The position numbers and the translations under genes are program-made. Below, piece by piece: positions 1,498-57,100 of a DNA stretch of 64,000 nt. Within the stretch, counting starts at the first letter, position 1; the number at the start of each line of letters is the position of its first letter. The DNA is from Alviniconcha marisindica (Eukaryota; Mollusca; Gastropoda; Provannidae): the NCBI GenBank assembly GCA_018857735.1, contig JABMCL010001457.1:455001-519000 (forward strand). The letters run 5' to 3'. The notes beneath the pieces are model-generated. The model had not been told where the DNA came from. It did no database searches and worked only from the letters and a program-made list of their open reading frames with translations.

Positions 1498-1545
1498 TTT
1501 CAGCTTGGCAGTGACGCCTGTCTACGTCAACATGATATAGCCCGT
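1498..1545 (+). pseudogene. HS2ST1: decayed copy of the HS2ST 3' splice site and exon start
   Basis: TTTCAG at 1498-1503 is followed by sequence translating TPVYVNMI and then an in-frame TAG at 1538-1540. The true exon at 1956 has TTTCAG followed by TPIYINMIR. About 22 of 25 bases match across that core. The copy lies about 450 bp upstream of the true exon and cannot encode a working exon because of the stop. It is read as a relic duplicate. Chance similarity is possible but unlikely given that splice site and reading frame both match. Confidence 0.6.
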
Positions 1546-1955
1546 GTTCCCAATATTGTACCATCTGTATAATAACGGTAATTTCTCTCGTAAAGATGTT
1601 TATGTAATGTCTGTCTGTATCTGTGCTTGAGACACATATTCATGTCTAACCTTACTACCCTTCTGATTATTTCGGATATAGAGTTAGTGCCGGAGACGGC
1701 TGACGCTTATTTCCTTCTTTCTTCTGCTTCTTCTTTTATTGATTTATTTATATATATATTTTTTTTTAATTTTAATACATCAACATGACTTCTGTTTCTT
1801 GGGACGAATTTCATTCTAACCCAATACTTACCTCCCAGCTCTTCATATTTCAAGTGCAAGAGATGCCTGCTAGACTGTATGGACGGACTTGCCCCTTTTA
1901 CCGCTTGAGGCATAAATGCCAGTCTAAGCAGACTACCTTACTGTGTGTGTTTCAG

Positions 1956-54100: not shown

Positions 54101-57100
54101 CTGGTAACACACACACAGTGAACAATGCACAATCCAATCTCACCTGGTAACACACACAGTGAACAATGCACTATCAAATATCACCTGGTAACACACACAC
54201 AGTGAACAATGCACTATCAAATCTCACCTGGTAAGTTCACTGACAGTTAAGAACGCACAATCGCTGCACATGTGGCACTCAAAGGAGACTGACAACACTC
54301 ATCAGAAATACATATCACCCTCTGGGGCAAAAGTGCACTTCAGTAGGGCTCCTCTTTGCTCAGGGGATCGTTCACATGGAACTATGATGAAAAGAGTTGC
54401 AGACAAAGTGGCTGTAACCCTGCTTCTGACAAGAGACTTGCCACTGCTGTGCCTGCCTTATGCCACAGGGAAATCCCAAGAAACAGGCTATTTTTCCACA
54501 TTTTCACACAATTTTTCTTCTTTTTCTCAAACACCGAAAAACAGAACTGCAGAAGTTCCAAGAAGCTAGGGAAGCAACTCTAACTGCTTGGACACAAAGT
54601 GAAACAAGAAAGCAGGAGTCTAATGCCAGTAACCAGCAATTACTTGTACACAAGTAACCTGGTCACTGCAAATGTTCGGCTGTTACTTGTACACAAGTAA
54701 CCTGGTGGCTCCAGCCATTACTTGTACACAAGTAACCTGGTCACAGCAAATGTTCCGCTGTTATTTGTACACAAGTAACCCAGCTGCTCCAACATGTTAA
54801 AAGAGGGGCAGTCTTTCGTCTTTTAAGTTTAATACACCATAACCAGCCATACAAGTAACCTGGTCACGGCAAATGTTTGACTGTTACTTGTACACAAGTA
54901 ACCCAGCTGCTCCAACGTGTTAAATGAGGGGCAGTCTTTCATCTTTTGACATTAATACCAATAACCAGCTATTACTGGTATACAAGTAACCTGGTCACAG
55001 CAAATGTTCAGCTGTTACTTTGCCAATGTACACAAGTAACCCAGTGGCTCCAAAGTGTTAAAAAAAGGAGCAGTCTTTCGTCAGGGGTTTCACTGCATCT
55101 CAAATCCTGGACCAGCGGTTCCTCTGAAGACCCCTGCACTCCCAACTCACTGGATCTTTTGAAGTGGCGGGTCCACAGACACTTGGCCAGGTGGGAGCAC
55201 ATCTGACAGTCTGACGCAGGGCACAGGTACTCGAAGCAGCTGCCCAGCTGCTGAATGATGTGCTGGTCCATGGGGCAGTTCTGGTCCTTGGGGCACGACG
55301 CCTTCACCGGGATGCACGCCCCCTTCGGGCAGTTCGTGCACCACTGGCACCGCTGCACAGGCAAAGCAGAAGGTGAAGGGGTTCATTGCATACATCCCCG
55401 ATAGCCAGGGCATGCTCCCTTGGAGCTGTGGCCTCAGAATCACATGCTGTGGGCACTGACTTTCATTGCAGAGATCTGCCTTCCAGGATTACAGTCACTC
55501 AAATTCTCTGTAGTCTGCTGATCACTTCTGGCCAAACTACCTTTGGCTTTTGCATCTTATTACACCAGCCTGCTTTTGACTTGTACATCTGTACACACAC
55601 ACACACACACACACACACACAGAGCAAAACAACAACCAATCAGTGGATCATTCTGACCTTTCAGCCAATGAAAGTCAGCTAGCACACCAACACCCCGAGA
55701 CAACCTCATGAAAATGGACACTTAACAGTCATGACTGTTTCACAAAACCTGCTCAGGATGCCACACCTGTGAGGATCAGGTGAATCATGCAAAGCTTGCA
55801 GCTACGTTGTGACCCACTACGGGCTTCAATGGGAGGAGGACGTTTTGACAGACCTGGGTTCTCAGCTTAGGGAACTTCAACTCTTCCACACAGCACCAGA
55901 AGGGAGAAAGACAGACAAGTGGATGGACAGATCAATGGACAGACAGACAGACACACACAAACTTTTACCTGATCCATGGCTTTAAACTGGGGGTACTTGG
56001 AGAGGCACTGTGAACAGGACTTGAAGCGACTGCAGTTCTGGGAGTTGTACCAGTGAGCGCTGCACTGTTTGCGTGACTCACTGGAGTCCTGCATGGTGCA
56101 CCTGCACACACAACACACACACAGCAGTGAAGTCAATCACACAGTATCAGATCAATACCTGCACACACAACAGTGAAGCCAATCACATAGTATCAGATCA
56201 ACACCCGCACACAACACACACACAGCAGTGAAGTCAGTCACATAGTATCAGCTCAACACCTGCACACACAACACACACACAGCGGTGAAGTCAATCACAC
56301 AGAATCAGATCAACACCTGCACACACAACACACACTCAGTGGTGAAGTCAGTCACAGAGTATCAGATCAACACCAGCACACACAACACACACACAGCGGT
56401 GAAGTGAACCACACAGTGTCAGATCAGCACCTGCACACACAACACACACACAGCGATGAAGTCAATCACACAGAATCAGATCAACACCTGCACACACAGC
56501 GGTGAAGTCAATCACATAGTATTAGATCAACACCTGCACACACAGCGGTGAAGTCAATCACACAGTATTAGATCAACACCAGCACACACAGCGGTGAAGT
56601 CAATCACACACAATCAGATCAACACCTGCACACACAGCAGTGAAGTCAATCACACACAATCAGATCAACACCTGCACCCACACAGCAGTGAAGTCAGTCA
56701 CACAGTATTAGATCAACACCGGCACACACAACACAGCAACAAGAAACGCTGCAGCGTGTGCGAAAGTATATCTACCATCTGTGATTATACAGCTATTTTT
56801 AAATTAGTTATTTTATGGAAACTTTCAAACAATCACTCATATTTAAAACCAGTGACACACATGATTATGACATACTATAATGCACTCATCAATCAATGAT
56901 CACCATCCCCACTCACTCTAGCGGTCGTCTCCGTCGTTTCCCAGCAGTGAAGCAGACGCCGGCTGTGGCGTTCCCACAGATGTGGCATCCCATGGTGGAG
57001 AGGCACTCGTCATGGCTGAAGATGGCGCAGATGTCTTCAGGGAGGGTCAGGCGTGACAGGGTGCCCACCATGTTGCCCACAAAGCCCCCAAACATGTAGA

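What the first reader, a model, noticed from the sequence alone, without database searches (positions are those of the whole stretch)
1498..56740. Recurrent local duplication of splice junctions in both genes
Seen: of 24 exons in the window, six have a duplicate or tandem array of their own splice site beside them. Five are acceptors (HS2ST 1956 and 17213; MEGF8 56101, 53760, 46558) and one is a donor (MEGF8 52434). A seventh, the acceptor at 45191, has its polypyrimidine tract repeated. Several copies carry the first exon bases. Inference: this genome may repeatedly form minisatellites anchored at exon edges, creating arrays of decoy splice sites. The caution is that the window is very rich in tandem repeats, so some adjacency is expected. 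I know of no described family of such junction-anchored arrays.
Basis: partly seen in the sequence, partly recalled or inferred. Interest (0 to 1): 0.75.

Follow-up and report, generated by a model that had tools for sequence, protein, structure and literature searches.

The report
Snail minisatellites spilling over splice junctions
In this snail genome short tandem repeats are so common that some run into the ends of exons and carry spare copies of the splice site with them; in the genes sampled this was no more common at splice acceptors than elsewhere in introns, rarer at splice donors, and it resembles the 'mirages' already described in amphioxus.

Summary
With exact models for 20 MEGF8 and 4 HS2ST exons (24 acceptors, 22 donors), all seven listed places carry copies, and one more was missed (acceptor 61542). 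The inferred anchoring at exon edges fails. In the window, junction-spanning copies occur at acceptors about as often as at random points in the same introns, and at 1 of 22 donors. The test was repeated on predicted junctions of myosin and SNF-transporter genes elsewhere in the same 818-Mb genome. Arrays touch 18 of 90 acceptors (locus-matched expectation 22.2) and 7 of 103 donors (expectation 24.5, P<0.0001). So acceptors are not enriched and donors are strongly depleted. The one unit that could be searched matched only its own locus. Decoy splice signals are mostly intact. Junction-spanning minisatellites are already described as 'mirages' in amphioxus (PMC3087553, PMC3902484), so the kind is known. 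New here: a mollusc, a measured frequency (arrays cross 11 of 90 acceptors and 5 of 105 donors) and the acceptor/donor asymmetry. Two oddities deserve RNA data: three in-frame open decoys before MEGF8 exon 18, and ten acceptor/donor double sites before exon 11.

The parts
44271..63065 (-). MEGF8, 20 exons of its C-terminal half
   Evidence: gene model, alignment to Nucella lapillus proteins
1956..18990 (+). HS2ST, four exons
1328..1537 (+). Degenerate upstream copies of the 1956 acceptor and exon start (1328-1369; 1457-1500 plus 1513-1537)
17121..17151 (+). Single copy of the 17213 acceptor with 9 exon bases, 70 bp upstream
   Evidence: 90% identity
61616..61645 (-).
   Evidence: 87% identity
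56116..56735 (-). 46/57-bp minisatellite before acceptor 56101; 12 joints, 8 with AG
53751..54234 (-). 43-bp minisatellite crossing acceptor 53760 (10 exon bases); 10 decoys cag|gtg, 7 of 10 at or above the median donor score
52209..52323 (-). Copy of donor 52434 (19 exon, 95 intron bases), 129 bp downstream
   Evidence: 84% identity
46536..46884 (-). 87-bp minisatellite crossing acceptor 46558 (23 exon bases); decoys at -87, -174, -261 in frame and open, a fourth at -343 not
   Evidence: single locus in the genome search
45198..45433 (-). About 70-bp array ending just short of acceptor 45191; AG not copied

Best explanation
These are ordinary, locally born minisatellites in a minisatellite-rich snail genome. 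Short tandem duplications arise throughout introns; some span a splice junction and then expand on the intron side. The exon-proximal copy stays the working splice site and the other copies are spare, mostly intact decoys. At acceptors such arrays occur at or below the rate inside introns; at donors most are missing, most likely because spare 5' splice sites are used too readily and are selected against. Shown: the copies, their frequencies against the null, the single-locus match of one unit, the intact signals. Inferred: which copy is used (reading frame and the Nucella protein; no RNA), selection as the cause of the donor depletion, and slippage or unequal crossing-over as the source.
For: Window, ungapped test: 18.7% of 48852 points outside exons at S>=15, acceptors 5 of 24, donors 1 of 22. 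Window, gapped test at score>=32: 26.5% of 2500 points in introns of the two genes, acceptors 6 of 24 (7 with the masked 56101), donors 1 of 22. Window, TRF arrays touching: 3 of 24 acceptors and 1 of 22 donors, null 24-27%. Other genes, 121 exons in 31 loci, 19.2% of bases in arrays of period 10 or more: arrays touch 18 of 90 acceptors and 7 of 105 donors, null 23.2%, acceptors p=0.53, donor p printed as 0.0000, acceptors against donors Fisher p=0.0089. Locus-matched: arrays touching 18 of 90 (expected 22.2) and 7 of 103 (expected 24.5, 0 of 20000 simulations as low to four digits); spanning copies 14 of 90 (expected 24.6) and 12 of 103 (expected 27.2). The 46558 unit finds only its own place. 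The Nucella protein has no added residues at 56101, 53760, 46558 or 45191.
Against: Against the intergenic null of the window (13.8% of 2500 points) acceptors with 6-7 of 24 look about twofold high. In the independent set array coverage 10-150 bp upstream of acceptors is somewhat above that farther away (difference 0.064, 95% interval -0.022 to 0.154), so a mild acceptor bias is not excluded. The two locus-matched tests differ for acceptors: below background for spanning copies (P=0.0045), not different for arrays touching (lower tail 0.17), and in the spanning-copy test donors and acceptors are depleted to a similar degree (11.7% and 15.6%), so the asymmetry rests on the TRF test. Only two gene families outside the window were sampled and their junctions are predicted, not seen in RNA.
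Confidence: 0.8

Rival explanations
1. Arrays are seeded preferentially at exon edges: something about splice junctions (pyrimidine-rich tract, transcription-linked breaks) makes duplications start there.
For: Arrays that reach exons end within about 60 bases of the junction (coverage profile); coverage is slightly higher just upstream of acceptors (0.064, interval including zero); acceptors exceed the window's intergenic null.
Against: Acceptors are not above the intronic null in the window or in 90 acceptors elsewhere, and donors are far below it. Array ends near exons are what one expects if arrays cannot extend through coding sequence.
Confidence: 0.1
2. The decoys are used: arrays supply alternative acceptors, or stepwise (recursive) splicing sites, and are kept for it.
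For: Signals are mostly intact in copies; before 46558 three of four decoys are in frame and open, adding 29, 58 or 87 residues; before 53760 ten of ten decoys are acceptor plus donor-like, seven of ten at or above the donor median.
Against: Four of 12 joints before 56101 have lost AG; the Nucella protein has no inserted residues; amphioxus mirages are reported not to disturb splicing (PMC3087553, PMC3902484, passages). An open frame of 29 codons in a multiple-of-three unit is not rare by chance.
Confidence: 0.1
3. Donor depletion has a mutational cause: starts of introns are less prone to duplication, rather than selection removing duplicated donors.
For: Only a depletion was measured; nothing here separates mutation from selection.
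Against: The depletion is tightest next to the donor (coverage about 21% far away, 5-6% within 30 bp), which fits avoidance of spare donors; this is an inference.
Confidence: 0.25

Closest known systems
[quoted passage not shown]
   Same: Tandem units span the junction with intron and exon bases; both acceptors and donors; units of tens to about 160 bp; many copies carry AG or GT signals (PMC3087553, PMC3902484, passages).
   Different: Here a gastropod; frequency measured against an intronic null; no RNA or allele data here.
[quoted passage not shown] only the title seen, in reference lists; the gene name is recalled)
   Same: A minisatellite whose units provide splice sites.
   Different: By its title the donor sites there are used; here most cases are acceptors and use is unknown.
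Intron gain by tandem genomic duplication (titles and abstracts in a listing only)
   Same: Tandem duplication creates new splice signals.
   Different: No new intron is shown here; the copies flank existing introns.
Recursive splice sites with zero-length exons (recalled)
   Same: Back-to-back AG|GT sites, as in the array before 53760.
   Different: No evidence of stepwise splicing.

Membership tests
Mirage (amphioxus term) | Tandem repeat units that span an exon-intron boundary | tested here: met
   53760, 46558 and, by 3 exon bases, 56101 in the window; 11 acceptors and 5 donors elsewhere
Mirage (amphioxus term) | Both 5' and 3' boundaries affected | tested here: met
Mirage (amphioxus term) | Unit length in the reported range (10 to 160 bp) | tested here: met
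   43, 46/57 and 87 bp in the window; 29-197 bp in 16 crossing arrays elsewhere, one of the 16 above 160
Mirage (amphioxus term) | Regular splicing not disturbed | not testable with these tools
   no RNA; indirectly, the Nucella protein lacks inserts at four of these junctions
Mirage (amphioxus term) | Length instability between haplotypes or cells | not testable with these tools
   one assembly only
Recursive (zero-length exon) splice sites | Back-to-back acceptor and donor signal inside an intron | tested here: met
   10 of 10 decoys before 53760 read cag|gtg, 7 of 10 at or above the median score of the 22 real donors
Recursive (zero-length exon) splice sites | Stepwise intron removal seen in RNA | not testable with these tools
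   no RNA
Intron gain by tandem duplication | Both ends of the intron derive from one duplicated segment | tested here: inconclusive
   in the window no intron shows a copy at both its ends, but the tests looked only 1.5 kb around each junction and old copies could be too diverged

The most novel reading that the evidence does not exclude
In minisatellite-rich genomes the two splice sites differ sharply in tolerance: junction-touching arrays at acceptors are close to neutral while those at donors are purged. Some arrays, such as the in-frame 87-bp array before MEGF8 exon 18, act as fast-evolving reservoirs of alternative acceptors that change protein length with copy number.
Probability: 0.15. 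Interest if true: 0.6.

Novelty: new member of a known kind. Interest (0 to 1): 0.35.

Why it matters
Junction-spanning minisatellites are known to me from single genes of amphioxus. Here they are frequent enough in one genome to be counted against a null. The count suggests that acceptors tolerate spare copies at about background level while donors do not, which makes the question of how the spliceosome ignores near-identical decoys testable with RNA-seq in a snail. It also warns gene annotators: in the related Nucella lapillus the MEGF8 model is split in two at a stretch of translated tandem repeat.

Tried and rejected
Anchoring at exon edges: not supported by the intronic null in the window or in 31 other loci. 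Selection that erases or keeps decoy AGs: in 12 acceptor arrays positions -2 and -1 showed 2 and 0 distinct changes, against about 4.3 per column over the other 18 columns. But the working copy cannot change at AG, only one copy of the 56101 array was aligned there, and that array has four lost AGs among 12 joints, so I read this as no evidence either way. The acceptor/donor contrast was too small in the window alone (3 of 24 against 1 of 22 touched, Fisher 0.61); it was repeated outside (first 15 of 62 against 7 of 77, Fisher 0.019; then 18 of 90 against 7 of 105). It does not show in the spanning-copy test (11 of 75 and 13 of 84; 14 of 90 and 12 of 103). A dispersed element as source of the units: the 46558 unit has no other place; the search for the 53760 unit was sent ten times and that for the 56101 unit once without an answer, so those two are untested. 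In one search the donor 52434 rows other than 52323-52209 are artefacts of my blanking of the self match and were not used. Rows dropped: domain-end edges; 20 of 159 predicted junctions with splice score below 2 (one search used all 159, another the remaining 139; the number dropped was not printed); 3 of 30 exons added by tblastn (a duplicate, one on the opposite strand, one with a conflicting position); two donors of look-alike alternative myosin exons. Of 161 listed exon hits (75 myosin, 86 SNF), 94 lay in fetched loci and were used (85, 9), plus 27 from tblastn between paralogues. The splice scores were trained on the window's own 46 junctions.

Full report
What the window is. The window is C1802:455001-519000 of a genome of 817,622,342 bases in 2806 contigs. 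The best protein match of its MEGF8 is from the dog whelk Nucella lapillus: 56% over the joined query and about 62-92% exon by exon. I therefore take the species for a caenogastropod snail, which is an inference. Exon models: 20 MEGF8 exons on the minus strand and four HS2ST exons on the plus strand, giving 24 acceptors and 22 donors. Period>=10 arrays cover 15.4% of the window, 26.1% of MEGF8 introns and 0.7% of exons.

Observation. Three are minisatellites whose units carry the junction: 56101, 53760 and 46558, with about 3, 10 and 23 exon bases shared. Four are one- or two-copy local duplicates: 1956, 17213, 61542 and donor 52434. At 45191 the units stop short of the AG.

Null in the window. 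For each point I asked whether the sequence across it has a copy within 1.5 kb, with microsatellites masked. Ungapped (S>=15): 18.7% of 48852 points outside exons, 5 of 24 acceptors, 1 of 22 donors. Gapped (score>=32): 26.5% of 2500 points in the introns of the two genes, 13.8% of 2500 intergenic points, 6 of 24 acceptors (7 with 56101, which was lost to masking), 1 of 22 donors. By TRF, arrays touch 3 of 24 acceptors and 1 of 22 donors, with null intervals at 24-27%.

Null outside the window. Myosin-head (75 hits) and SNF-transporter exons (86 hits) of the same genome were used where they lay in 31 fetched loci. With paralogue searches this gave 121 exons, with 90 acceptors and 105 donors of adequate splice score; 19.2% of bases lie in arrays of period 10 or more. 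Arrays touch the junction (15 intron, 5 exon bases) at 18 of 90 acceptors and 7 of 105 donors; the null is 23.2%; acceptors p=0.53; donors p printed as 0.0000; acceptors against donors p=0.0089. Matched by locus and without two look-alike alternative exons: arrays 18 of 90 (expected 22.2, lower tail 0.17) and 7 of 103 (expected 24.5, lower tail printed as 0.0000); spanning copies 14 of 90 (expected 24.6, P=0.0045) and 12 of 103 (expected 27.2, P=0.0001). An earlier run on fewer loci gave 11 of 75 and 13 of 84 against 26.9% of 5000 points. Coverage by arrays falls from about 21% far from donors to 5-6% within 30 bp of them. At acceptors it is 22-26% from 150 down to 10 bp upstream and then falls from 16% to 4% through the first 60 exon bases. 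The acceptor rise over distal intron is 0.064, with a 95% interval of -0.022 to 0.154. Arrays cross 11 of 90 acceptors and 5 of 105 donors. So there is no anchoring by these tests. The acceptor/donor asymmetry is clear in the array test but not in the spanning-copy test.

Decoys. Where copies were found they mostly keep their signals: 10 of 10 before 53760, 4 of 4 before 46558, 66 of 66 and 15 of 15 at two acceptors of one myosin locus, 7 of 8 and 5 of 6 at two SNF acceptors, but 8 of 12 before 56101. At several junctions some decoys score as high as the true site. Before 46558 the decoys at -87, -174 and -261 are in frame and open, adding 29, 58 or 87 residues; a fourth at -343 is not. Before 53760 each of ten decoys reads cag|gtg, seven of them at or above the median score of real donors. 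The Nucella protein has no inserted residues at 56101, 53760, 46558 or 45191, so the exon-proximal copy is presumably the one used.

Reading. The simplest account is random tandem duplication and expansion in a minisatellite-rich genome, cut off at exons by selection on the protein, tolerated at acceptors and selected against at donors. The last step is inferred from depletion only; a mutational cause at intron starts is not excluded.

What is known. [quoted passage not shown] PMC3902484 (passages) adds TnC and PGBD5. The Adh paper of 2002 was seen only as a reference and is not held. The 1995 paper on a human minisatellite providing multiple splice donors was seen only as a title. My two searches aimed at molluscs and gastropods listed 2 and 10 papers; none is about this by title or abstract start, and apart from the two amphioxus papers I did not open them. 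Hence: new member of a known kind, with a frequency estimate and an asymmetry that may be new.

Noticed in passing
Protein P0010, residues 1479-1835 (Nucella lapillus model ACOMHN_016687): The related snail's MEGF8 model runs, just after the residues that match the end of the exon ending at window 61981, into about 350 residues of translated tandem repeat (periods 36, 71, 107 residues), and the gene goes on in the next model. A minisatellite in or near that intron seems to have broken the gene prediction.
   Followed up: partly
L007 (C2278:139000-148999): Four myosin exon copies matching profile positions 119-154 (at 142786, 143464, 146144, 148362 of the contig), which look like mutually exclusive alternative exons.
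   Followed up: no
L012 (C447:60500-70499), acceptor at locus position 7328: A 39-bp array of about 68 units directly before a myosin exon; 66 of 66 detected copies keep AG. The longest decoy acceptor array seen here.
   Followed up: partly
window 32780-33918: A 34/71-bp array of 1.1 kb between the two genes, spanned by long open frames (368-401 codons) in three plus-strand frames.
   Followed up: no
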